Source: Actinomycetota bacterium (lineage in GTDB: Bacteria; Actinomycetota; Thermoleophilia; Gaiellales; Gaiellaceae). Taken from it: a stretch of DNA of 16,258 nt. The notes under the pieces were generated by a model, which was not told the DNA's origin, searched no databases, and saw only the letters and a program-made list of their open reading frames with translations. Numbering within the stretch: position 1 is the first letter of the stretch; every line of letters starts with the position of its first letter. The stretch spans positions 1 to 16,258 of the forward strand of contig VAYE01000148.1 in NCBI GenBank assembly GCA_005883235.1, in the 5' to 3' direction. This document shows, piece by piece, positions 1,066 through 16,013 of this stretch. A program made the position numbers and the translations under genes.

Positions 1066-1775
1066 ATTAGCCTGCCGTCGCGGAGCTCGACGACCCGGTC
1101 GGCCGCCTCGGCCACCTTCGAGGAGTGTGTGACGAGAACGACGGTGCTCCCGAACTCCTCGCGGAGGCGCTGCAGCGCCTCCAGGACGAGCTCCTCGTTG
1201 CGGGCGTCGAGCTCGGCGGTCGGCTCGTCGGCGAGGACGAGCGGCGCCTCGCGCGCGGCCGCGGCCGCGATCGCCGTCCGTTGCTGCTCGCCGCCCGAGA
1301 GCGTCGCGGCACGCTGCCGCTCGCGCTTCTGGAGGTCGAAGGCGTCGAGGGCGCGATCGACCCGCTCGCTCGTCCGGCGGGTTCCGGCGAGCCGCAGCGC
1401 GAGCGCGACGTTCTCCCTGGCCGTCAGCTCGGGCCACAGATTGCCGCTCTGGAAGACGATCGCGACCTCGCGCGCCCGGTACGCTGCGAGCTCGGTCTCG
1501 TCGAGCCGGCCGAGCGAATGCCCGAGGGCCCGCACCTCCCCTGCGGAAGGCTCGTCGAGGGCCGCGGCGAGGTGGAGCGCCGTGCTCTTCCCCGACCCGG
1601 ACGGGCCGAGCAGCGCCACGAGCTCACCCTGCTCGATCCGGAGCTCGAGGCCTCGCAGCGCCACCGTCTCCGCAGGCCCCGAGCGGAAGATCTTGAAGAC
1701 GTCGTGGAACTCGAGCGTGCCGAACGAGACCTCCTCGCGCTCGCTCGGCTCGCGGTAGAGGCTCCTTACCTCCAC
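1062..1775 (-). CDS. ABC transporter ATP-binding protein (LolD/MacB-like), first of a pair
   Basis: This is a 237-residue ATPase with an N-terminal extension of about 17 residues before the domain. The only sensible in-frame start is GTG at 1775-1773, overlapping the end of the lipoprotein gene by 10 nt; the ribosome binding site is weak, which suggests translational coupling. Motifs seen are Walker A GPSGSGKST (57-65), Q-loop in VFQSGNLWP, signature LSGGEQQR (about 159-166), Walker B LVLADEPTAELD (about 179-190) and H-loop THSS (about 216-219). All catalytic positions are intact. The stop overlaps the GTG of the next ATPase gene (ATGTGA context), so the two ATPases are made together. Known relatives (LolD, MacB, FtsE) power export or extraction machines that do mechanical work rather than classical import. 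Here the partners would be the permease and the lipoprotein of the same operon. Confidence 0.93.
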   Translation of the reverse strand: MEVRSLYREPSEREEVSFGTLEFHDVFKIFRSGPAETVALRGLELRIEQGELVALLGPSGSGKSTALHLAAALDEPSAGEVRALGHSLGRLDETELAAYRAREVAIVFQSGNLWPELTARENVALALRLAGTRRTSERVDRALDAFDLQKRERQRAATLSGGEQQRTAIAAAAAREAPLVLADEPTAELDARNEELVLEALQRLREEFGSTVVLVTHSSKVAEAADRVVELRDGRLM

Positions 1776-2392
1776 CGGAAGCTCTCGATCATCAACCGGT
1801 ACGCGTCGACGTTGTCGACGCCCTTCGGCGTGCCGAGATCGACGATCGCCTCCTTGCCTCCCCGAGCCACGTAGTAGCGGTCGACGAGCAGCGTGACGCG
1901 CTTGCCCGTGACGGGGTTCGGCGCGCTCTGGGTCGAGTAGCTCACCTTCCATCCCGGGGCTCCGGCGAGCGTGAGCCGCTTCGGCGGAGCGACGACCTGC
2001 GCGCCGGCGAGGCGGCTGCGGACGCTCGCGAGCGTCGGGGGCGCCGCGTGGAGGACGACGACGCGGACGACGTTGTTCTTGTCCCGGAAGGCGATCTTCG
2101 AGCCGGATCCCTGCTGCGCCCAGCCCTCCGGGTACTTCATGGAGTAGCCGGCGCCCGCGTCCCGGAACGTGAGGAAGACCTGGTTGTCGGGGATGTCGCC
2201 GGTCGCGGCCGATTTGGCCTCGGCCTGCAGGGCCGAGGGGGCCGACGGCGACGCCGAGGCCGTCTTGGTGCTGGCCGTCGGCGCCGCCGCCGGGGGTGAG
2301 GGATTCGTCGCCGTCGCCGGTCTCGATGTATGCGACGAGCCGCAGCCGGCGAGGCCGACCGCGACGAGCACGACGACGGCGAACGGTTTCAT
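1766..2392 (-). CDS. Secreted lipoprotein with PsbP/DUF1795-like domain
   Basis: This is a 208-residue protein. A hydrophobic signal sequence ends in the lipobox LAGC, so Cys17 is the predicted lipidated residue and the mature protein would be anchored on the outer face of the cytoplasmic membrane. Residues of about 18-60 are a low-complexity Ser/Thr/Pro/Ala linker. From about residue 68 a folded domain begins with FRDAGAGYSMKYPEGW and ends in DAYRLMIESFRW. That pattern (a Y-S-x-x-Y-P-x-x-W opening and a final helix with FRW) is characteristic of PsbP-like/DUF1795 lipoproteins in Gram-positive bacteria, which have no generally established function. It is the first gene of the ABC operon. The ATG has no clear Shine-Dalgarno sequence, and an 11-bp-period direct repeat lies 22-42 nt upstream. 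It may be an accessory or substrate-presenting subunit of the transporter (inference). Confidence 0.85.
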   Translation of the reverse strand: MKPFAVVVLVAVGLAGCGSSHTSRPATATNPSPPAAAPTASTKTASASPSAPSALQAEAKSAATGDIPDNQVFLTFRDAGAGYSMKYPEGWAQQGSGSKIAFRDKNNVVRVVVLHAAPPTLASVRSRLAGAQVVAPPKRLTLAGAPGWKVSYSTQSAPNPVTGKRVTLLVDRYYVARGGKEAIVDLGTPKGVDNVDAYRLMIESFRWR

Positions 2393-2532: not shown

Positions 2533-3825
2533 ATGAGCGCGCGACGCCGGGGCGGCCCCCGGTCCTCTGTCGGTTCTGTGCCGTGGATCGACCGGTGGCT
2601 TGCGGCCTGCCATGATCTCGCCGAGCTGGAGCGATCGCACCCGATGACGGATGCCGTCATCGACGCGATCGACGGCCGCCGGATCCGCATCGGCGAACGC
2701 TGGCTCGCCGATTTCGCCTCGTGCAACTACCTCGGCTTCGACCTCGACCCGGAGATCATCGGCGTCGTCCCGGAGTACCTGGCGAAGTGGGGGACGCACC
2801 CGAGCTGGTCGCGCCTGCTCGGCAGCCCCGTCCTCTACGAGCAGATCGAGGAGCGTCTGGCCGACCTGCTCGGCTGCGAGGACACGCTCGTCCTGCCCAC
2901 GATCACGCTCATCCACATGTCGGTGATTCCCGTGCTCGCGGGGAGCGGGACGATCTTCCTCGAGAGCCGCGCGCACAAGACGATCTACGACGGGTGCCTG
3001 GTCGCGCAGGCGCACGGCGCCAAGCTCAAGCGGTTCGCGTTCGAGGACCCGGAGGATCTCGAGCGGTTGCTCCAGGAGGCGCACCCGTCGCCGCGGCTCG
3101 TCTGCCTCGACGGGATCAACAGCATGACCGGGAACCCGCCCGACCTCCACGCCTTCGCCCGGATCGCCCGTGACTACGACGCCGTGCTCTACGTGGACGA
3201 CGCCCACGGCTTCGGCGTCATCGGGGAGCGCGGCCCGGAAGAGCCGAGCCCCTACGGGCTCCGCGGGAACAGCATCGTGCGTCACTTCGGCGAGAGCTAC
3301 GAGAACGTCGTCCTCGTCGGGGGCTTCTCGAAGGCGTACTCGTCGCTCGCCGCCTTCGTCGCCTGTCCGACAGAGCTGAAGCGCCTGCTCAAGACGGCCG
3401 CGCCGCCCTACCTCTACTCGGGTCCGTCGCCGGTCGCATCCCTCGCGACTGTCATCGCGGGCTTCGACGTGAACGACGCACGGGGCGACGCGATCCGTGC
3501 CGACCTGTGGCGCAAGGCCGAGCAGGTGCTCGATTGCCTCGACCGCCTCGGCGCTCACACGCCGAACCGGTCCGGCTTCCCGCTGATCGAGGTGCCCCTC
3601 GTGGACCACGAGGAGATCGCCGACGCGGGCCGCTTCCTGTTCGACCACGGCATCTACGTGACCCTCGCGGCCTACCCGCTCGTCCCCAAGAGCGAGGTCG
3701 GGTTCCGCATCCAGATGACCGCAGCCAACACGCAGGCCGAGGTCGAGCAGCTCGTCGACGTGCTCGGCAGGCTCGCCGAGCGCTTCGAGCTGCAGCCGGT
3801 CGGGACGGCCGAGGTGGCCGCATGA
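2533..3825 (+). CDS. PLP-dependent alpha-oxoamine synthase-like enzyme (KBL/BioF/SPT/CqsA superfamily)
   Basis: A fold-type I aminotransferase-like protein of 430 residues if it starts at ATG 2533. In-frame GTGs at 2464 and 2578 are alternatives and none has a strong ribosome binding site. Family marks are CNYLGFD (about 64-70), a His in SRAHKTIYDG (H148) at the usual HASxxDG position, VDDAHGFGVIG (221-231) carrying the PLP-nitrogen Asp222 and His225, and the Schiff-base lysine in GGFSKAY (K267). Near the C-terminus, GFRIQMTAANT holds the substrate-carboxylate Arg typical of the family. Known members condense an amino acid with an acyl-CoA, releasing CO2 and CoA. Which amino acid and acyl group are used here cannot be read. 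The usual E-G-x-x-S-M-x-G-D loop is altered to DGINSMTGNPPD (about 193-204). The stop overlaps the start of the GGDEF/EAL gene as ATGA, which points to a signalling rather than a biotin or glycine role (inference). Confidence 0.85.
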   Translation: MSARRRGGPRSSVGSVPWIDRWLAACHDLAELERSHPMTDAVIDAIDGRRIRIGERWLADFASCNYLGFDLDPEIIGVVPEYLAKWGTHPSWSRLLGSPVLYEQIEERLADLLGCEDTLVLPTITLIHMSVIPVLAGSGTIFLESRAHKTIYDGCLVAQAHGAKLKRFAFEDPEDLERLLQEAHPSPRLVCLDGINSMTGNPPDLHAFARIARDYDAVLYVDDAHGFGVIGERGPEEPSPYGLRGNSIVRHFGESYENVVLVGGFSKAYSSLAAFVACPTELKRLLKTAAPPYLYSGPSPVASLATVIAGFDVNDARGDAIRADLWRKAEQVLDCLDRLGAHTPNRSGFPLIEVPLVDHEEIADAGRFLFDHGIYVTLAAYPLVPKSEVGFRIQMTAANTQAEVEQLVDVLGRLAERFELQPVGTAEVAA

Positions 3826-6800
3826 GCTGGCGCAACCGGGTGTGGGCCGTCTATCTGGCCGTCGCGGGCGCTCTGATGCTGACCTACCTCTTCTTCCCGC
3901 CGCTCGCCGGGAACGGGCCGCTGATCAACGTGCTCGGGCTCTCGGGCGTGGTCGCGATCGTCGTCGGCATCCGAATGCACCGGCCGCGGGCTCGCGCCGC
4001 CTGGTGGCTCTTCGTCGTCGGGCAGTTCCTGTTCTGGGCCGGCGACATCTATACGTACAGCTACCGGATCCTGTTCGGCGCCGACGTGCCCTTCCCGTCC
4101 GTCGGCGACGCGCTCTACCTCGCCGTGTATCCGGCGCTGATGGTCGGACTCGTCTTGCTCGTCAAGCGCCGGAACCCGAAGCGCGATCGCTCGGCGCTCA
4201 TCGACGCGGCCATCCTCACCGTCGGCGTCGGACTGCTCTCGTGGGTCTTCCTCATCGCCCCGAACATCCACCTCACGGGACTGACGTGGCTCCAGCAGGC
4301 GGTGTCCGTCGCCTACCCGCTCGGCGACGTCCTCCTGCTCGCAGCGGTGATCCGCCTGGCCGTCGACATGGGCAAGCGCGCGCCTGCCTTCTACCTGCTC
4401 GTCAGCAGCATCGTCTGCCTGCTCGCCACGGACTCGGCGTACAACTACGCGCTCCTGAAGGGCACGTACAGCCACAAGCAGCTCGGCTACGACGCCGGCT
4501 GGATCCTCTACTACCTCCTCTGGGGCGCGGCCGCGCTCCATCCCTCCATGCGGACCCTCGACGAGGAGCCTGCGCACGATGTCCGCACCCGGCTCACGCC
4601 GCTCCGGCTCACGCTGCTCGGCGGCGCGTGCCTGATCGCGCCGGGGATTCGCTTCGTCGAGGAGCTCGGTAATCCCGACGTCGTCGTCGTCATCGTCTCT
4701 TCCGCCGTGCTCTTCCTGCTCGTCGTGGCACGCATGGCCGGTCTGGTTCGCCAGGAAGAGCGCGCGGTGTCGAGAGAGCTCGCGCTGCGGGGCGCCGGCG
4801 CGGAGCTCGTCGCCGCCGCCGGGCGCGAGCAGGTGCACGGTGCCGCCATCTCCGCCGTCTCGGCTCTGCTCGGCGACGACACACGCGCCCGGGTCGTGCT
4901 CTTCGAGAACGGCGGCGGCGCGGTCGCGGCCTCCAGCGAGGGTGAGGCGTGGTTGCTGACGAAGACCGGAACCGACTGGCTCCATGTCGCGTCGAGGAAT
5001 GGGCACGTGCCGCTGTCGAACGTCGCCGACCGCGTGCGGAGCGAGCTCCGCCTCTTCGAGGGCCAGTCCGTCCTCGTCTTCCCGCTCTCCGTCCGCGACG
5101 AGACGCGCGGCGTGCTCGCGATCTGCTCGTCCGACTCGGTGCAACGGGAGCAGGTGGACTCGCTCGAGGCGCTCGCGACGCAGGTCTCGCTTGCCGTGGA
5201 AGGCGCCTCGCTCGCCGAGGACCTCCACCGCCGCCAGAGCGAGGCCCGGTTCCGCTCGCTCGTCGCGCACTCGAGCGACCTGATCACCGTCCTCGATGCC
5301 GAGGGCCTCGTCACCTACCAGAGCCCGTCCGTCGAGCGGGTGCTCGGCTACAAGGCGGGTGAGCTCGAGGGGACGCGGTTCGACCGGCTCGTCGCCGAGG
5401 CCGACCAGCCGCGGCTCGCCCAGGTCGTGTCGAAGGGCGGTCAAGAGCGCGCCGAGACGCACGCCATCGAGTGCGCGCTCCGTCATCGCGACGGCACCTG
5501 GCTCCAGTTCGAGGTGCAGCACACGGATCTGCTCCAGGACGAGCACGTGAGCGGGATCGTCCTGAACAGCCGCGACGTCAGCGAGCGCAAGGCCTTCGAG
5601 GACCAGCTGGCGCACCAGGCCTTCCACGACCCGGTCACGAACCTCGCCAACCGCGCCCTCTTCGCCGACCGTGTGCAGCACGCGTTGATGCGCGCTCAGC
5701 GCGAGGGCCAGTCCGTCGGCGTGATGTTCATCGACCTCGACGACTTCAAGACCGTCAACGACAGCCTCGGCCACGCCGCCGGCGACCTCGTGCTCCAGGA
5801 GGTGGCCCGCCGCCTCTCCCTGACGGTCCGCCCTGCCGACACGGTCGCGCGCTTCGGCGGGGACGAGTTCGCGATCCTGCTCGACGGCGTGGGCAACCTC
5901 CAAGAGGCCGCGGACGTCGCGGACCGGATGCTCGAGGAGCTGGAGCGCCAGTTCGAGATCGACGCGAAGCAGGTCTTCCCGCGCGCGAGCGTCGGGATCT
6001 GCCTGGCGGACGGCGAGGTTCCGGCGCACGACGCCGAGGAGCTCCTCCGCAACGCGGACGTCGCCATGTACATGGCGAAGCGCGACAGCAAGGGCAGCTA
6101 CCGCGTCTTCGAGCCGGCGATGCACGAGCGCGTGCTCGCGCGGCTCGAGCTCCGAGCCGATCTGCAGCGCGCGATCGACGAGGACGAGCTCGAGGTCCAC
6201 TACCAGCCGGTCGTGCGTCTCGACGGACGGGTCATGTACGGCGTGGAGGCACTCCTCCGCTGGACCCACCCGACGCGCGGGAACATCCCGCCGCTCCAGT
6301 TCATCCCGCTCGCCGAGGAGACCGGCCTGATCATCCCGATCGGTCGCTGGGTCCTCGGAGCCGCGTGCCGCGAGGGCGTCGTCATCCACGAGCGGTTCGC
6401 GCGCGAGGATCCGTTGACGATCAGCGTCAACCTGTCGGTCAGGCAGCTCCAGTCGGACACGATCGTCGCCGACGTACGCGACGCGCTCGAGACGAGCGGC
6501 CTGCCTCCGTCGGCGCTCGTGCTCGAGATCACGGAGTCGGTCATGATGGCCGACACCGACCTCGCGGTGCAGCGGCTGAACGACCTGAAGGCGCTCGGCG
6601 TCCGGCTCGCGATGGACGACTTCGGGACGGGGTACTCCTCGCTGAGCTACCTCGGCCGGTTCCCGGTCGACATCCTCAAGATGGACCGCTCGTTCCTCGC
6701 CTCCGGCGAGAACGACTCGCTCGCCGCCGCGGTGATCGCCCTCGGCGCCAGCCTCGCGCTCGACGTCGTCGCCGAGGGAATCGAGTACCCGGAGCAGGCC

Positions 6801-6947
6801 AGCTCGCTGCGGGAGCTCGGCTGCGAGCTCGGACAGGGCTTCCTCTTCGCCCGCCCGATGGCGCACGACGCGCTCCACGAATACCTCGAGGTCGACGACG
6901 CGTCGCGGGCCGGGCTCGACGAGCAGCCCGAGCCGCATGCAGCATAG
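3822..6947 (+). CDS. Multi-TM GAF-PAS-GGDEF-EAL membrane protein (c-di-GMP synthesis/degradation)
   Basis: A 1041-residue protein; the ATG at 3822 overlaps the upstream stop (ATGA). About ten hydrophobic segments fill residues 8-305. That region has the pattern PSVGDALYLAVYP (92-104), a second YPLGDVLLLA (165-174) and LWGAAALHPSM (233-243); I cannot match it to a named MASE or 7TM family. A GAF-like region follows (about 325-465), then PAS (about 475-590: FRSLVAHSSDLITVLD, with an SPSVERVLGY helix), GGDEF (about 600-760) and EAL (about 775-1030). The cyclase motif FGGDEF (678-683) is intact and is preceded by an RxxD inhibitory site (RPAD, five residues before GGDEF). The EAL domain keeps EALLRW (809-814), NLSVRQ, LEITES, DDFGTG, the Lys of ILKMDRSF, AEGIE and the QGF glutamine. 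Both activities are therefore possible. It is coupled to the synthase before it and the MFS gene after it (11-nt overlap), so the TM part may sense a molecule made by this operon (inference). Confidence 0.95.
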   Translation: MSWRNRVWAVYLAVAGALMLTYLFFPPLAGNGPLINVLGLSGVVAIVVGIRMHRPRARAAWWLFVVGQFLFWAGDIYTYSYRILFGADVPFPSVGDALYLAVYPALMVGLVLLVKRRNPKRDRSALIDAAILTVGVGLLSWVFLIAPNIHLTGLTWLQQAVSVAYPLGDVLLLAAVIRLAVDMGKRAPAFYLLVSSIVCLLATDSAYNYALLKGTYSHKQLGYDAGWILYYLLWGAAALHPSMRTLDEEPAHDVRTRLTPLRLTLLGGACLIAPGIRFVEELGNPDVVVVIVSSAVLFLLVVARMAGLVRQEERAVSRELALRGAGAELVAAAGREQVHGAAISAVSALLGDDTRARVVLFENGGGAVAASSEGEAWLLTKTGTDWLHVASRNGHVPLSNVADRVRSELRLFEGQSVLVFPLSVRDETRGVLAICSSDSVQREQVDSLEALATQVSLAVEGASLAEDLHRRQSEARFRSLVAHSSDLITVLDAEGLVTYQSPSVERVLGYKAGELEGTRFDRLVAEADQPRLAQVVSKGGQERAETHAIECALRHRDGTWLQFEVQHTDLLQDEHVSGIVLNSRDVSERKAFEDQLAHQAFHDPVTNLANRALFADRVQHALMRAQREGQSVGVMFIDLDDFKTVNDSLGHAAGDLVLQEVARRLSLTVRPADTVARFGGDEFAILLDGVGNLQEAADVADRMLEELERQFEIDAKQVFPRASVGICLADGEVPAHDAEELLRNADVAMYMAKRDSKGSYRVFEPAMHERVLARLELRADLQRAIDEDELEVHYQPVVRLDGRVMYGVEALLRWTHPTRGNIPPLQFIPLAEETGLIIPIGRWVLGAACREGVVIHERFAREDPLTISVNLSVRQLQSDTIVADVRDALETSGLPPSALVLEITESVMMADTDLAVQRLNDLKALGVRLAMDDFGTGYSSLSYLGRFPVDILKMDRSFLASGENDSLAAAVIALGASLALDVVAEGIEYPEQASSLRELGCELGQGFLFARPMAHDALHEYLEVDDASRAGLDEQPEPHAA

Positions 6948-8244
6948 TCACGAGGCGCTCGACCGCCCCGGGGGCCTCGCCGCACTCACCACCCTCGCAC
7001 CGCTCCGGCACCGCGACTTCCGGCTGCTCTGGGCAGGCATGACCGTCTCGCTCCTCGGCGACGGCATCTTCCTCGTCGCGATCGCCTGGGAGGCCTACGT
7101 CCTCTGGAACGCGCCGGCGGCCCTCTCGATCGTCGGGATCGGGATGACGGTGCCGATGATCGCGTTCCTCCTCCCGGGCGGAGTGCTCACCGACAGGCTC
7201 GACCGGCGCCGCGTGATGCTGGCGGCCGACGCGGTGCGCGCCCTGGCGGTCGCGGGGCTGGCGGCGCTTGCGTTCGCCGGTCTGCTGCGCTTCTGGGAGC
7301 TCGTCGCGCTCGTCGCGCTCTACAGCGTCGGGACCGCCTTCTTCACGCCTGCGTTCGACGCGATCGTCCCCGACCTCCTCCCGGCGGAGGACCTCGCCGC
7401 CGCGAACTCGCTCGACCAGTTCGTCCGGCCGATCGCGCTCCGGCTGGCGGGGCCCGCGGTCGGGGGCTCGCTCGTGGCCGTCGCGGCGGGCGCCGCGTTC
7501 GCCGTCGACGTCGTGACGTTCGCGGCGTCCTGGATCGCTGTGCTGGCGATGCGCCCGCCGGCGCACCCCCGGCACGAGGCGCACGAGCCCGCGTTCGCGG
7601 CGCTCATGGCCGGCCTGCGCTTCGTGCGGCGTCGCGTCTGGCTGTGGGGCACGCTCCTCTCGGCCGCTGTGGCGTACCTCGCGTTCCTCGGCCCGACCGA
7701 GGTACTGCTTCCGTACGTGGTGAAGAACGACCTGCACGCCTCGGCCCGCGACCTCGGTCTCGTGTTCGCCGCGGGCGGGCTGGGGGCCGTCGGCGCGGCG
7801 CTGCTCATGGGGCAGCGCGGCCATCCGCGCCGGGACGTCACGTTCATCTACGGCACGTGGACGCTGGCCACGCTCGCCGTCGCCGGGTACGGGCTCGCGA
7901 CGGCGGCCTGGCAGCTCGCGCTCGCCTGCCTCGTCTTCAACGCGCTCGAGGCCGCCGGCACGATCGTCTGGGCGACGCTCAAGCAGCGGCACGTGCCGGC
8001 CTCGATGCTCGGCCGGGTCTCGAGCCTCGACTGGCTGATCTCGATCGGGCTCCTGCCGCTCTCGTTCGCGCTGACCGCGCCGGTCGCTGCGGCCGTCGGC
8101 GCTCGCGCCACGCTGATCGGAGCCGCGGCGATCGGCGGTGCCGTGACGCTCGGTGCGCTCTTCCTGCCGGGGATGCGCGACGTCGAGGGAGCGGCCGGCG
8201 AGGCTGCGATCTCTCGTGCCGCGGCGCCGAGCGCGACGTTCTGA
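6937..8244 (+). CDS. MFS transporter (MFS_3/EntS-like exporter)
   Basis: A 435-residue, about 12-helix major facilitator protein. The ATG at 6937 lies 11 nt inside the end of the GGDEF/EAL gene, so translation is probably coupled. The N-terminus (LRHRDFRLLWAGMTVSLLGD) and the loop 2-3 motif GGVLTDRLDRRRVM (about 81-94) are typical of the MFS_3 group, which includes the enterobactin exporter EntS and many actinobacterial drug or siderophore exporters. A central basic loop (MRPPAHPRHEAHEP) divides the two six-helix halves, and the C-terminal tail is about 25 residues. The direction of transport is inferred from the family, and the substrate is unknown. As the third gene after an acyl-condensing PLP enzyme and a membrane sensor, it could export the enzyme's product. 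The 3' 266 nt are also open on the opposite strand as the tail of the deacetylase gene. Confidence 0.92.
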   Translation: MQHSHEALDRPGGLAALTTLAPLRHRDFRLLWAGMTVSLLGDGIFLVAIAWEAYVLWNAPAALSIVGIGMTVPMIAFLLPGGVLTDRLDRRRVMLAADAVRALAVAGLAALAFAGLLRFWELVALVALYSVGTAFFTPAFDAIVPDLLPAEDLAAANSLDQFVRPIALRLAGPAVGGSLVAVAAGAAFAVDVVTFAASWIAVLAMRPPAHPRHEAHEPAFAALMAGLRFVRRRVWLWGTLLSAAVAYLAFLGPTEVLLPYVVKNDLHASARDLGLVFAAGGLGAVGAALLMGQRGHPRRDVTFIYGTWTLATLAVAGYGLATAAWQLALACLVFNALEAAGTIVWATLKQRHVPASMLGRVSSLDWLISIGLLPLSFALTAPVAAAVGARATLIGAAAIGGAVTLGALFLPGMRDVEGAAGEAAISRAAAPSATF

Positions 8245-10651: not shown

Positions 10652-11980
10652 GTGATCGAAAGCGACGTCGACGGGCTCAACGCCGGGTACGCCCGGCTGC
10701 TCCTCGAGGAGTACCTCGAGAACCCGGAGGCGGTCCCGAGCGAGTGGCGCGCCCTCTTCGAGAGCGGCTCGAGCGAGCTCGTCGCGACACACCCCGGCCT
10801 GGCCCGCCTGCTGGAGACGCTGGCCGCCGACGGAAACGGCCACGTCGCCGCTCCCGCGCCACCGCAGCCCGCACCCCCGCCGCCCGCGCCTGCGGCTGCG
10901 CCTGCCCCCGCCGCCGCACCGCCCGACGAGACGCTTCTCGGGGCCGTCGCGGCGGGAATGGCGCTCGTCAAGGCGCACCGCACGCACGGCCACCTCGCGG
11001 CGCATCTCGATCCGCTCGGCTCCGAGCCGCCGGGCGACCCGGCGCTCGAGGCAGAGCGCCTCGTCCCGAAGCTGACCCCCGAGCTCCAGGCCCAGGTTCC
11101 GGCCCGCCTCCTGCGCACGTACGTGCCCGGTGAGACGCTCGCCGAGGTGCTGCCGAAGCTGCGCGAGACCTACTGCGGCACGAGCGCGTACGAGCTCGAG
11201 CACATCTCCGACCACGAGGAGCGCGTCTGGCTCCGGCAGGCGATCGAGTCCGGCCGCTACCGCACGCCGCTCTCCGCGGACGAGAAGCGCCGCCTGCTGG
11301 CGCAGCTGACCGAGGTCGAGGGCTTCGAGCGCTTCCTCCGCCGCGCGTTCCTGGGTCAGAAGCAGTTCTCGATCGAGGGCCTCGACGTGATGGTGCCGAT
11401 GCTCGACGAGACGATCGGTCTCGCTGCCGAGGCCGGGGCGCACGAGGTCGTGATCGGGATGGCCCACCGCGGGCGCCTCAGCGTCCTCGCCCATACGCTC
11501 GGCCGGCCCTACGAGACGATCCTGCGCGAGTTCGAGGGCGAGCGGACGATCGACGCCGTCGCGGCCGACCCCGAGGGCGGGACGGGCGACGTCAAGTACC
11601 ACCTCGGCGCCGCGGGCGTGCGCTCGACCCCCACCGGCGAGGTGACCGTGACCCTCGCCGCGAACCCGAGCCACCTCGAGGCGGTCGATCCCGTGGTCGA
11701 GGGGCGGACACGGGCCGAGCAAACCGACCGCGGCACGCGCGAGGGGCTCCACGACCCGCGGGTGGCGATGCCGATCCTCATCCACGGCGACGCGTCGTTC
11801 CCGGGCCAGGGGATCGTCGCTGAGACGCTGAACCTCGCCAATCTCGCCGGCTACTCGACCGGCGGCACGCTCCACCTGATCGCGAACAACCAGATCGGCT
11901 TCACGACCGACCCGGTCGAGGGCCGCTCGACCCGCTACTCGAGCGACCTCGCCAAGGGCTTCGACGTGCCGATCATCCGC
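10652..11980 (+). CDS. sucA: 2-oxoglutarate dehydrogenase E1 component, 5' part of a disrupted gene
   Basis: The E1 subunit of the 2-oxoglutarate dehydrogenase complex decarboxylates 2-oxoglutarate with thiamine diphosphate in the TCA cycle. From GTG 10652, residues 1-40 carry the short N-terminal E1 motif (NAGYARLLLEEYLENPEAVPSEW). An Ala/Pro linker (66-90) follows, and then the E1 core directly, without the E2 domain fused in mycobacterial Kgd. Seen in the core are FLGQKQFSIEGLDVMVPMLD (234-253), GMAHRGRLSVL (269-279), GDVKYHLGA (312-320), and the thiamine-diphosphate motif from GDASFPGQG (379-387) to NNQIGFTT (412-419). Homology stops after KGFDVPII (435-442). The frame then runs out of register to 13012 with Arg-rich nonsense that overlaps the true 3' half in another frame. 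The expected HVN...HGHNExDEP segment of the family is absent. This is either a real deletion or an assembly error. Confidence 0.9.
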
Positions 11981-11981
11981 T

Positions 11982-13292
11982 TATACACAGCCGCTGATGG
12001 CGGAGAAGATCGCCCGCCACCCGAGCGTGCGACAGCTTTTCGCCGAACGGCTCGCCGAGGAGGGCGTCGTGAGCGCCGACGGGGCGGAGCGCCTGCTCCA
12101 GGAGGTCGAGACCAGACTCCGCGCCGCGCACGAGAGCCTCCGCTCCTCCTTCGGCGGCCAGGGCTCCCCGAGCCCGGTCCGGGAAGGGCACATTCCGCGC
12201 TCGTCGGGCACGGAGGTCGTGACTGCCGTCGCCGCCGATCGGCTCCGGGCTCTCAACGAGGAGCTCCTCACGGTCCCGGAGGGCTTCACCGTGCATCCGA
12301 AGCTCGCGAAGCAGCTCGAGCGGCGGGTCGCCGCCCTCGACGAGGGAACGATCGACTGGGGTCAGGCCGAGGCGCTCGCCTTCGGGTCGCTCCTCGTCGA
12401 GGGGATTCCGATCCGACTGACCGGCCAGGACACCGAGCGCGGCACGTTCTCGCACCGGCACATGGCGCTCCACGACGCGCGCACGGGCGAGGTCTACAAG
12501 CCGATCCAGCACCTCGCCGAGGCCTCCGCCTCGTTCGAGGTCCACAACTCGCCGCTCTCCGAGCTCGCCGCCGTCGGCTTCGAGTACGGGTACTCGATCG
12601 CGGCGCCCGAGACGCTCGTCCTCTGGGAGGCGCAGTTCGGCGACTTCGTGAACGGCGCGCAGATCGTCGTCGACCAGTTCCTCGTCTCGGGCCTCTCGAA
12701 GTGGCGGCAGACGTCGCGGTTGACGCTCCTCCACCCGCACGGCTACGAGGGCAACGGGCCGGAGCACTCGAGCGCGCGGCTCGAGCGGTTCCTCCAGCTC
12801 GCCGCGCAGGAGAACATCCGGATTGCGAACTGCACGACGGCCGCGCAGCTCTTCCACCTGCTGCGGCGGCAGGCGCTGGACGCCTCGGCGCGGCCGCTCG
12901 TCGTGATGACGCCGAAGGGCCTGCTGCGGCTGCGCCAGGCGGCCTCGACGCTCCAGAAGCTCTCGGACGAAGCGTTCCGGCCCTTGCTCGACGATCCGGA
13001 GGCGCAGCGTGAGCAAGTGCGCCGCCTCGTCCCGTTCCCGGTCGCCGCGGCGGCCGAGCTCGCGCGCTCGTATCCGGCGCTCGAGGAGGTCGTGTGGGCC
13101 CAAGAGGAGCCGCAGAACATGGGCGCGTGGCGCGCGATCCGGCACCGCCTCGAGGAGGCGCTTCCGGAGACGGTTCCGCTCGACTACGTCGGCCACCCGT
13201 GGCGCGCCAGCCCGTGCGAGGGGTATCCGACGGCCCACCTGCGCGAGCAGGACCGGATCGTCCGCGAGGCCTTCGGCGTTAGCGTCGCCTGA
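11982..13292 (+). CDS. sucA: 2-oxoglutarate dehydrogenase E1 component, 3' part of a disrupted gene
   Basis: Homology resumes with YTQPLMAEKIARHPSVR, coded from 11982 in the +1 frame relative to the 5' half. If translated separately, the first ATG is 11997 (431 aa). Family marks are RGTFSHRHMALHD (about 144-156), NSPLSELAAVGFEYGYSIA (about 184-202), WEAQFGDFVNGAQ, HGYEGNGPEHSSARLERFLQ (about 244-263) and VVMTPKGLLR. It ends normally with ...EAFGVSVA. The two halves plus about 48 missing residues give about 927 residues, close to E. coli SucA (933). Alone this half lacks the thiamine-binding motif and would be inactive. The 3' end overlaps the convergent small gene by 14 nt. Confidence 0.9.
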   Translation, partial: YTQPLMAEKIARHPSVRQLFAERLAEEGVVSADGAERLLQEVETRLRAAHESLRSSFGGQGSPSPVREGHIPRSSGTEVVTAVAADRLRALNEELLTVPEGFTVHPKLAKQLERRVAALDEGTIDWGQAEALAFGSLLVEGIPIRLTGQDTERGTFSHRHMALHDARTGEVYKPIQHLAEASASFEVHNSPLSELAAVGFEYGYSIAAPETLVLWEAQFGDFVNGAQIVVDQFLVSGLSKWRQTSRLTLLHPHGYEGNGPEHSSARLERFLQLAAQENIRIANCTTAAQLFHLLRRQALDASARPLVVMTPKGLLRLRQAASTLQKLSDEAFRPLLDDPEAQREQVRRLVPFPVAAAAELARSYPALEEVVWAQEEPQNMGAWRAIRHRLEEALPETVPLDYVGHPWRASPCEGYPTAHLREQDRIVREAFGVSVA

Positions 13293-14243: not shown

Positions 14244-16013
14244 CTGACCAGCTTCCGCCTCAAGCTGGTGGTCTACTTCCTACTGCTGTCGCTGCTGCCG
14301 CTTGCCGCTGCTTTCTCCGGCTTCGCGGCGGTGGCGAAACGAAGCGAGACGAGGCTCGTCGACGCGCGCCTGCAGGCAGGGCTGCGCGCTGCGCTCGCCG
14401 CCTACGAGGAGCGGCTGTCCGCGGCCGACGCGTCGGCGCGCGCGCTCGCGCGGAGCCCCTCGTTCCAGCGTGCCCTCGCCGAGCGGGACACGTATGCGCT
14501 CGAGCGGGCCGTCCGGAGCTCGGCGAACATCGTGGTCGAGGCCCGGAACGGGTTCCGGGTCGGCTCGGAGCCGCCCCTCGCCGCCGAGCGCCGAGCCGAC
14601 GTCGTCGGCCGGCGCGGCCTCGTCGGCACCGTCATCGCCTGGGTTCCGCTCGGCTCCTCCTTCCTCCAGCAGCTCCGGACCCGCTCGGGCCTCAAGTCGA
14701 GCGACGCGATCGTCCTGCTGCGAGGCGGCCGGATCGTCGCGGGCCCGCCCGGCCTGCGCGGCCCGGTCGCTGCTCCGCCGGGGATGATGCGCACCGTCTC
14801 GGTCGGCCGTGTCCGCTACCGGGCTCTGGTGGCAGGGAGCCTGCGGGAGAACCCCGCCTCGACCTTCGCCGTCCTCAGCCTGCAGTCGAAGATCGACGCC
14901 GCGTCCTCGGCGGTCGAGCACCGCCTCCTGCTCGCGCTCGTCGCGCTGCTCGGATTGGTCGGCGTCGTCGCCTACTTCGAAGGCCGGACGATCGTCCGGA
15001 CCGTCGCCGACCTGTCCGCCGCAGCCCGCGCGATCGCCCGCGGAAAGCTCGACGAGCGGGTGCGCGTTCGCGGTCGTGACGAGCTCGCCGTCCTCGGCAG
15101 GTCGTTCAACGAGATGGCCTCCGAGCTCCAGGCCCGCCTCGAGGAGCTCGAGGCCGAGCGGGCGCGCCTCCGGGAAGCGTTCTCCCGCTTCGGTGAGGCG
15201 CTCGCGGCGACCCACGATCCCAGCCAGCTCCTGCGCGTGATCGTCGAGACGGCCGTCGAGGCGACCCGCGCCGCCGGCGGCATGCTCGTCGGCCCGAGCG
15301 GCGAGGTCGCCCGTGTCGGATCGCGGGAACCACGGCACGAGCTGCTCGAGGTTCCGCTCGCTGCCGGCCGCTCGAGCTTCGGCACGCTGACGCTCTTCGG
15401 CGACCAGTTCGGCGAGGAAGAGAGGATGACGGCCGCGACGCTCGCCGCCCACGCGGTCGTGGCGCTCGACAACGAGCGCCTGCACCGGTTCGTCGAGCGC
15501 CAGGCCCTCGTGGACGGCCTGACCGGTCTCGCCAACCGGCGGCACGGCGAGGAGGTGCTCGCCGCCGAGGTGGCGCGGGCCCAGCGCTTCGGCGGCCCGG
15601 TCGCGCTCGTGCTGGCCGACCTCGACGGCTTCAAGGACGTGAACGACCGGCACGGGCATCCGACCGGCGACATGGCGCTCCGCGAGTTCGCCGAGGTGCT
15701 GCGAGCAACGGTGCGCGACCTCGACCTCGTCTGCCGCTGGGGCGGCGAGGAGTTCGTGCTCGTGCTCCCCGGCACCGACGCCGACGGGGCCGAGCAGCTC
15801 GCCGAGCGAATGCGCAAGACGCTCCGCGAGCGCGTGCTCGGCGGCCCGGACGGCGCCCGGTTCGTGCTCACGGCGAGCTTCGGCGTCGCATCCTTCCCCG
15901 AGGCCTCGTCGCCGGACGAGCTCGTCGCCCAGGCCGACGGGGCGCTCTACGACGCGAAGCGGAACGGCAAGGACCGCGTCGAGCGCGCCTCACGTGTGAC
16001 GTCGACGTCGTAG
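14244..16013 (+). CDS. Membrane diguanylate cyclase: sensor-HAMP-GAF-like-GGDEF
   Basis: A 589-residue inner-membrane protein predicted to make c-di-GMP from two GTP. The start is inferred as CTG 14244, placed after AAGGAG and immediately before the TM1 region (TSFRLKLVVYFLLLSLLPLA). TM1 is at about residues 8-27. An extracytoplasmic sensor domain (about 30-225), rich in Arg/Ala helices and not assigned to a named family, follows. TM2 is at about 228-245 (LLLALVALLGLVGVVAYF). HAMP is at about 247-300 (DELAVLGRSFNEMASEL), followed by a coiled segment (LEELEAERARLREAF) and a GAF-like region (about 315-410). The GGDEF domain is at about 420-583 with DGLTGLANRR, DLDGFKDVND and WGGEEF (499-504). 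A product-inhibition RxxD site (RDLD) sits five residues before GGEEF. All active-site residues appear intact. It is transcribed away from the Pro/Ala-rich secreted protein gene, with a shared inverted repeat between them. Confidence 0.92.
   Translation: MTSFRLKLVVYFLLLSLLPLAAAFSGFAAVAKRSETRLVDARLQAGLRAALAAYEERLSAADASARALARSPSFQRALAERDTYALERAVRSSANIVVEARNGFRVGSEPPLAAERRADVVGRRGLVGTVIAWVPLGSSFLQQLRTRSGLKSSDAIVLLRGGRIVAGPPGLRGPVAAPPGMMRTVSVGRVRYRALVAGSLRENPASTFAVLSLQSKIDAASSAVEHRLLLALVALLGLVGVVAYFEGRTIVRTVADLSAAARAIARGKLDERVRVRGRDELAVLGRSFNEMASELQARLEELEAERARLREAFSRFGEALAATHDPSQLLRVIVETAVEATRAAGGMLVGPSGEVARVGSREPRHELLEVPLAAGRSSFGTLTLFGDQFGEEERMTAATLAAHAVVALDNERLHRFVERQALVDGLTGLANRRHGEEVLAAEVARAQRFGGPVALVLADLDGFKDVNDRHGHPTGDMALREFAEVLRATVRDLDLVCRWGGEEFVLVLPGTDADGAEQLAERMRKTLRERVLGGPDGARFVLTASFGVASFPEASSPDELVAQADGALYDAKRNGKDRVERASRVTSTS

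What the first reader, a model, noticed from the sequence alone, without database searches (positions are those of the whole stretch)
2533..8244. Synthase-sensor-exporter operon: alpha-oxoamine synthase, 10-TM GGDEF/EAL protein and MFS exporter in overlapping genes
Seen: three plus-strand genes overlap by 4 nt (ATGA) and 11 nt. They encode a PLP-dependent acyl-condensing-type enzyme, a polytopic membrane protein with intact GGDEF and EAL domains, and an MFS_3-type transporter. Known: CqsA/LqsA, members of the same PLP superfamily, make alpha-hydroxyketone/aminoketone autoinducers and sit beside polytopic sensor kinases (CqsS/LqsS). Inference: here the sensor output would be c-di-GMP turnover instead of phosphorelay, with a dedicated exporter. 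This would be a cell-cell signalling or lipid-sensing module not described to my knowledge.
Basis: partly seen in the sequence, partly recalled or inferred. Interest (0 to 1): 0.75.

Follow-up and report, generated by a model that had tools for sequence, protein, structure and literature searches.

The report
Synthase coupled to c-di-GMP membrane sensor
A family of small-molecule-making enzymes in soil actinobacteria is nearly always encoded beside, and in Streptomyces fused to, a membrane sensor that turns over the second messenger c-di-GMP, which suggests a cell-signalling system not found described in the papers searched.

Summary
The window carries an alpha-oxoamine-synthase-fold enzyme (2533-3825), a 10-TM/GAF/PAS/GGDEF/EAL protein (3822-6947) and an MFS_3 transporter (6937-8244), overlapping by 4 and 11 nt. 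In an even draw of 299 Thermoleophilia genomes, 26 have the synthase, and in 26 of 26 a protein with the same membrane domain lies beside it. The pairing survives changes of gene order. In Streptomyces both are one polypeptide, mostly about 1430-1600 aa. One such protein is named S. venezuelae; its architecture fits CdgF, listed in print as 10TM-PAS-PAC-GGDEF-EAL without a synthase, function still undefined in 2026. The synthase is a separate clade, keeps its catalytic residues in 35 of 36 aligned members, and coexists with higher-scoring BioF/KBL-type enzymes in 6 of 6 genomes examined. It is not a CqsA-family member. Shown: a conserved synthase/sensor module. Inferred: the product is sensed by the 10-TM domain (RpfF/RpfR-like logic). 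Product and direction of control are unknown.

The parts
2533..3825 (+). alpha-oxoamine-synthase-fold PLP enzyme (SYN); Schiff-base lysine K267 in GGFSKAYSS at 3331-3333, D222 and H225 in DDAHG
3822..6947 (+). membrane-bound GAF-PAS-GGDEF-EAL protein, 1041 aa, overlaps SYN by 4 nt
3822..4790 (+). N-terminal 10-TM domain (NTD), conserved beside the synthase and found on other output domains too
4890..5198 (+). GAF domain (residues 357-459)
5247..5591 (+). PAS domain (about residues 476-590)
5619..6092 (+). GGDEF domain (residues 600-757); the five GGDEF codons at 5856-5870
6156..6857 (+). EAL domain (residues 779-1012), EALLRW and DDFGTG present
6937..8244 (+). MFS_3 (EntS-like) transporter, 435 aa, overlaps the sensor by 11 nt

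Best explanation
A conserved signalling module of Actinomycetota. The PLP enzyme condenses an amino acid with an acyl thioester to an amphiphilic alpha-aminoketone. The product acts as a signal, is released (MFS_3 transporter where present), and is perceived in the membrane by the 10-TM domain of the partner protein, which shifts the balance of its GGDEF and EAL domains and so c-di-GMP. Synthase and receptor are held together, by operon or by fusion, so that the receptor may also restrain the synthase, as RpfR does RpfF. Shown: the genes, their conserved pairing, the fusions, the conserved catalytic residues and the separate clade. Inferred: acyl and amino substrates, export, ligand binding, direction of output.
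For: 26 of 26 synthase-bearing Thermoleophilia genomes (of 299 drawn) have an NTD protein beside the synthase, same contig and strand, 17-265 nt between the profile matches. In the 38 genome-contig loci it is the immediate neighbour gene in 33 of the 34 where both flanks could be judged or the partner was seen. Five arrangements occur: syn>sensor>MFS; divergent (L026); sensor>syn (L029-L032, L125); fused (L119-L124); separated by a third gene family in Frankia-type loci. Fusions: 6 of 30 Actinomycetes loci read; the 120 listed of 472 hits are fusions (NTD profile in 113 of 120, synthase profile in 120 of 120, the letters GGDEF in 119 of 120). Chance adjacency to a GGDEF gene is about 0.3-2% (10-53 GGDEF hits per genome in 8 genomes, at about one gene per kb). 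K267, D222, H225, H148 and R392 are kept in 35 of 36 aligned members. In 24 partner proteins over 1000 aa among L001-L038 and the window, 24 have GGDEF/Y, 22 an E-x-[LVIM]-[LVIM]-RW and 23 a DDFGxG pattern. In L018 the next gene carries the same NTD on a histidine kinase, followed by the MFS and then an NTD-GGDEF-EAL protein: two receptors with one sensor domain at one synthase. A relative of the window's MFS (over 45% identity) is present in 20 of 25 of the L001-L038 loci with room to see it. RpfF/RpfR is the published precedent.
Against: No product, ligand or c-di-GMP measurement is known to me for any member. The MFS gene is missing in 5 of 25 loci with room, and no relative of it was labelled among the genes printed around the six fusions. 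The NTD is much commoner than the synthase (121 of 299 genomes at E 1e-15 against 26 of 299 at E 1e-60), so it can sense something without a synthase nearby. Solirubrobacter phytolaccae (L036) has the synthase without the neighbour. In Frankia-type loci the GGDEF-EAL gene is two to four genes off and often on the other strand, and its membrane part is only distantly related (E 1e-8 to 1e-18, found in 19 of 21). S. venezuelae cdgF deletion had no developmental phenotype in the conditions tested. One degenerate synthase (L147) lacks K267 yet still sits beside the sensor, which a pure signal-synthase reading does not predict.
Confidence: 0.45

Rival explanations
1. Reverse direction: the 10-TM/GAF/PAS part senses an unrelated membrane or redox cue, and the sensor protein (by c-di-GMP level or direct contact) switches the synthase on and off. 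The product is a metabolite or membrane amino-lipid, not a signal.
For: Fusion places the synthase at the C-terminus, where an output domain normally lies. The NTD occurs without a synthase on other proteins and on a histidine kinase (L018), so it has a sensing role independent of the product. A methyltransferase-family gene follows the fusion in 6 of 6 loci (cluster; one member checked by Pfam), as in a biosynthetic route.
Against: GGDEF and EAL motifs are kept in nearly all full-length partners, more than a mere scaffold would need. L018 carries two NTD receptors with different outputs at one synthase locus.
Confidence: 0.35
2. Serine-palmitoyltransferase-like first step of a sphingolipid or related membrane lipid, co-regulated with envelope c-di-GMP signalling.
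Against: Far below every SPT cut-off (174/500, 158/640, 127/670 bits). I recognised no later sphingolipid gene by eye in the neighbourhoods printed; no genome-wide search was made.
Confidence: 0.1
3. It is the biotin enzyme BioF or the threonine-catabolic KBL, placed by chance beside a GGDEF/EAL gene.
For: The BioF model is the best-scoring NCBIfam hit (191 bits), and JGI annotation names many members BioF. In 4 of 9 genomes the synthase was the only match to profile A1 at E 1e-5.
Against: 191 against a cut-off of 426 bits. In 6 of 6 genomes searched with the BioF model another locus scores 378-460 bits (best per genome; over the cut-off in 2 of 6) while the synthase scores 170-195. The 36 synthases are one side of a branch with 100% SH-aLRT. 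Chance neighbours would not stay paired across arrangements.
Confidence: 0.03
4. The synthase is a moonlighting or pseudoenzyme regulatory partner whose main role is to bind and control the sensor.
For: L147: a degenerate synthase (S, Q, A and G at the positions of K267, D222, H225 and H148) still sits next to a sensor with intact motifs. 2 of 120 listed fusions have Q at 267.
Against: 118 of 120 listed fusions and 35 of 36 aligned members keep the lysine.
Confidence: 0.05

Closest known systems
RpfF/RpfR (BDSF) system of Burkholderia and Cronobacter
   Same: Signal synthase partnered with a PAS-GGDEF-EAL receptor that converts the signal into c-di-GMP turnover; the receptor directly restrains the synthase (abstract and one Discussion section of PMC6361424 read).
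   Different: There the synthase works on acyl-ACP to make fatty-acid signals and the receptor uses an FI domain plus a DSF-binding PAS. Here the synthase is a PLP alpha-oxoamine synthase, the receptor has a 10-TM domain, and the two are fused in Streptomyces.
CqsA/CqsS and LqsA/LqsS
   Different: The synthase is far from CqsA (73.5 bits against cut-off 428; 18% identity in the structural alignment). CqsS/LqsS have six TM helices and a kinase; here ten TM helices and, L018 apart, GGDEF/EAL.
CdgF (and CdgC) of Streptomyces venezuelae
   Same: CdgF is listed as 10TM-PAS-PAC-GGDEF-EAL with all key residues of both domains, found in the membrane fraction (PMC6205966, passages). The fused protein P0231, named S. 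venezuelae, has NTD, PAS, GGDEF and EAL with both motif sets. G478 and G521 each hold one such fusion plus one NTD protein with GGDEF but no EAL motif found, like CdgC.
   Different: The passages read do not mention a synthase domain on CdgF. Identity of P0231 with vnz02140/sven0451 is inferred, not checked by sequence.
BioF, KBL, SPT, ALAS (alpha-oxoamine synthases)
   Same: Fold and catalytic residues.
   Different: Separate from the BioF, KBL-type and SPT rows of the tree (no ALAS or CqsA row in it); own features (SKAYSS, N399 where the solved relatives shown have His, an insert of about 11 residues) and a different neighbourhood.

Membership tests
Alpha-oxoamine synthase superfamily | fold type I PLP enzyme with Schiff-base Lys, PLP-ring His, Asp/His pair and substrate-carboxylate Arg (roles recalled) | tested here: met
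Alpha-oxoamine synthase superfamily | acyl-thioester plus amino acid condensation | not testable with these tools
   needs an assay
BioF (biotin) | score above NCBIfam TIGR00858 cut-off 426 bits | tested here: not met
   191 bits
CqsA/LqsA alpha-hydroxyketone synthases | score above NF005526 cut-off 428 bits | tested here: not met
   73.5 bits
CqsA/LqsA alpha-hydroxyketone synthases | adjacent polytopic sensor histidine kinase | tested here: not met
   GGDEF/EAL partner in the window; a histidine kinase neighbour identified only in L018
Serine palmitoyltransferase | score above an SPT equivalog cut-off | tested here: not met
   174 of 500, 158 of 640, 127 of 670 bits
RpfF/RpfR system | synthase of the RpfF family (crotonase fold, recalled) | tested here: not met
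   synthase is a fold-type-I PLP enzyme
RpfF/RpfR system | PAS-GGDEF-EAL receptor encoded with the synthase | tested here: met
   PAS, GGDEF and EAL domains, preceded by a 10-TM domain that makes it a different receptor
GGDEF/EAL c-di-GMP enzymes | catalytic motifs present | tested here: met
   RFGGDEF, EALLRW, DDFGTG in the window protein
MFS_3 transporters | Pfam MFS_3 above gathering score | tested here: met
   154 against 27 bits
CdgF of Streptomyces | 10TM-PAS-PAC-GGDEF-EAL with both motif sets, one such protein per genome | tested here: inconclusive
   architecture met for the fusions in G478 and G521 and for P0231; the locus tag vnz02140 itself was not compared by sequence

The most novel reading that the evidence does not exclude
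A widespread actinobacterial cell-cell signalling class in which an alpha-oxoamine synthase and its 10-TM receptor/c-di-GMP enzyme form one unit, and in Streptomyces one chain (CdgF): autoinducer synthase, receptor and second-messenger enzyme in a single polypeptide.
Probability: 0.35. Interest if true: 0.9.

Novelty: new variant of a known kind. Interest (0 to 1): 0.72.

Why it matters
c-di-GMP controls development and antibiotic production in Streptomyces, but the signals perceived by the sensory parts of its turnover enzymes are stated to be unknown (PMC6205966, passage). This finding attaches a small-molecule-making enzyme to one of them (most likely CdgF, function undefined as of 2026) and shows the same pairing across several actinobacterial lineages. 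The question 'what do 10-TM GGDEF/EAL proteins sense?' becomes testable with one mutant, one enzyme assay and one metabolite comparison in a laboratory strain. If the signal reading holds, it would be a new kind of actinobacterial cell-cell signal.

Tried and rejected

Literature: 10 searches in the held library; no listed paper was seen to describe an alpha-oxoamine synthase or aminotransferase joined to GGDEF/EAL. Searches asked this most directly: one search had no hit; the single hits (PMC3382624, PMC7652997) were judged unrelated from their listing alone; one search listed 10 of 93, all with zero occurrences of 'oxoamine synthase'. Most subscription papers are not held, so this is not proof of absence. 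Papers seen beyond search listings: PMC6205966 (passages and section 9), PMC6361424 (abstract and section 18), PMC13232838, PMC7911125 and PMC3376566 (passages).

Not done: a search outside Actinomycetota (the single genome-contig scan returned actinobacterial records and one record titled only 'bacterium', but its two patterns also missed the Streptomyces members); a genome-wide search for sphingolipid genes; a co-evolution test of synthase and NTD trees; wider loci for 5 of the 36 Actinomycetes genomes.

Full report
OBSERVATION. The three plus-strand genes are real and as described. Pfam places Aminotran_1_2 on the first, GAF, PAS, GGDEF and EAL on the second and MFS_3 on the third. GGDEF and EAL motifs are present.

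CONSERVATION, THERMOLEOPHILIA. A scan of genome contigs with a 14-row synthase alignment gave 38 loci. In one (L038) the synthase fragment was too short to be called, and in three (L034, L035, L037) the contig ends inside the gene, so the downstream side is unseen. In 33 of the remaining 34 the immediate neighbour encodes a protein with the homologous membrane domain; the exception is Solirubrobacter phytolaccae L036. In L018 that neighbour is a histidine kinase. Flanking genes otherwise differ. In 299 genomes drawn evenly from the class of G001, 26 have the synthase at E <= 1e-60. The class is not named by the tool; I take it to be Thermoleophilia because the G220 hit has nearly the coordinates of L012, a record titled Thermoleophilia. 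The NTD profile A2 hits 121 of the same draw of 299 (E <= 1e-15). All 26 synthases have an NTD hit directly downstream on the same contig and strand, 17-265 nt from it. 25 of those NTDs are the 25 best-scoring in the list (372-488 bits); the 26th is G285 (250 bits), whose synthase (L147) is degenerate. A relative of the window's MFS (over 45% identity) is there in 20 of the 25 loci where the contig runs far enough; L017, L025, L029, L032 and L036 lack it, and 13 could not be judged.

CONSERVATION, OTHER ACTINOBACTERIA. 36 of 394 genomes of the class of G008 (the genome of L030, Kineosporia) have the synthase at E <= 1e-50; 1 of 66, the query genome itself, in the class of G006 (L026, Euzebyaceae). 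I read wider loci for 30 of the 36, plus Kineosporia in L030. In 6 of 30 synthase and sensor are a single ORF of 1425-1602 aa (L119-L124). In L125 the order is sensor>synthase>MFS. In 21 a GGDEF-EAL gene lies two to four genes away, in 21 of 21 with a member of one gene family between; the member checked, in L133, is a leucyl/phenylalanyl-tRNA transferase. In 19 of these 21 the NTD profile finds the membrane part at E <= 1e-3; all 21 carry GGDEF and DD[FY]GxG, 16 the EAL-type pattern. In 2 (L129, L148) the contig ends too early. GGDEF hits per genome range from 10 to 53 in eight genomes, so at about one gene per kb a chance immediate neighbour is expected in roughly 0.3-2% of cases, and one within four genes in about 2% for the Frankia-type genomes. 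Loci within one lineage share ancestry and are not independent; the five different arrangements are the better argument.

FUSIONS. A protein search with the synthase part of the L119 protein, in which only proteins of 0.55 to 1.75 times its 1602 aa could match, gave 472 hits, of which 120 are listed. The listed ones carry the synthase domain with GGDEF and/or EAL, and those whose organism is given are Streptomyces. All 120 match the synthase profile; 113 match the NTD profile (six of the seven others are shorter predictions of 1050-1138 aa); 119 contain the letters GGDEF; 118 keep K267 and 2 have Q. One, P0231, is named S. venezuelae. In S. venezuelae the published list has one 10TM-PAS-PAC-GGDEF-EAL protein with all key residues, CdgF, and one with a degenerate EAL, CdgC (PMC6205966, passages). 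I infer that CdgF is the fusion and that its synthase domain went unlisted. [quoted passage not shown] CdgF was judged not involved in developmental control from the mutant phenotype.

THE SENSOR DOMAIN. The 10-TM domain has invariant acidic and aromatic residues in its 21-row alignment (D75, D96, D128, D169, D204, W61, W141, W227, PSM at 241-243). It also occurs without the synthase nearby (121 against 26 genomes; examples). In L018 the gene next to the synthase is NTD-PAS-HisKA-HATPase, and after the MFS comes an NTD-GGDEF-EAL protein. No known fold is claimed.

MECHANISM. What is shown is a conserved, sometimes fused, synthase/c-di-GMP-sensor unit, with a transporter in most of the non-fused, non-Frankia loci that could be judged. 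What I infer as most likely (0.45) is a signal made by the synthase and read in the membrane by the NTD, as in RpfF/RpfR, where synthase and PAS-GGDEF-EAL receptor act together and the receptor restrains the synthase. The main rival (0.35) is that the sensor controls the synthase and the product is an effector. The C-terminal place of the synthase in the fusions, and the methyltransferase-family gene after the fusion in 6 of 6 loci, favour the rival somewhat; the two NTD receptors of L018 favour the first.

NOVELTY. The parts are known kinds; the combination, and a single-chain form, I could not find in the held library. I rate it a new variant of a known kind, with a bolder reading kept open.

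Noticed in passing
window 10652-13292: A 2-oxoglutarate dehydrogenase E1-like gene (my reading, no family search) is interrupted near 11976-12007: against the 934-aa ORF of L001 about 37 codons are unmatched and the frame changes. Could be a real lesion or an assembly fault.
   Followed up: partly
L147:7056-8105 (minus): Degenerate synthase lacking K267, D222, H225 and H148, still next to a 10-TM GGDEF-EAL protein with intact motifs: possible pseudoenzyme partner.
   Followed up: partly
L018:2104-4221 (plus): Same 10-TM domain on a PAS histidine kinase between synthase and MFS, with an NTD-GGDEF-EAL protein after them.
   Followed up: partly
L119:8957-9856 and counterparts in L120-L124: A methyltransferase-family gene directly after the fused gene in 6 of 6 loci; the L119 member matches NNMT_PNMT_TEMT. 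It may modify an amine product.
   Followed up: partly
L126-L128, L130-L144, L149, L150, L157 (Frankia-type loci): A gene family (L133 member: leucyl/phenylalanyl-tRNA protein transferase) lies between the synthase and the GGDEF-EAL gene in 21 of 21; a Methyltransf_11-type gene is often divergent from the synthase.
   Followed up: partly
121 of 299 Thermoleophilia genomes: The 10-TM domain, above no Pfam cut-off, is a widespread input domain.
   Followed up: partly
window 14268-16013: A second GGDEF-type protein with membrane segments (my reading of the sequence, no family search) near the window's end.
   Followed up: no
window 1766-2392 (minus): Small lipoprotein-like gene with a weak PsbP match divergent from the synthase operon, next to two ABC-transporter ATPases.
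   Followed up: no
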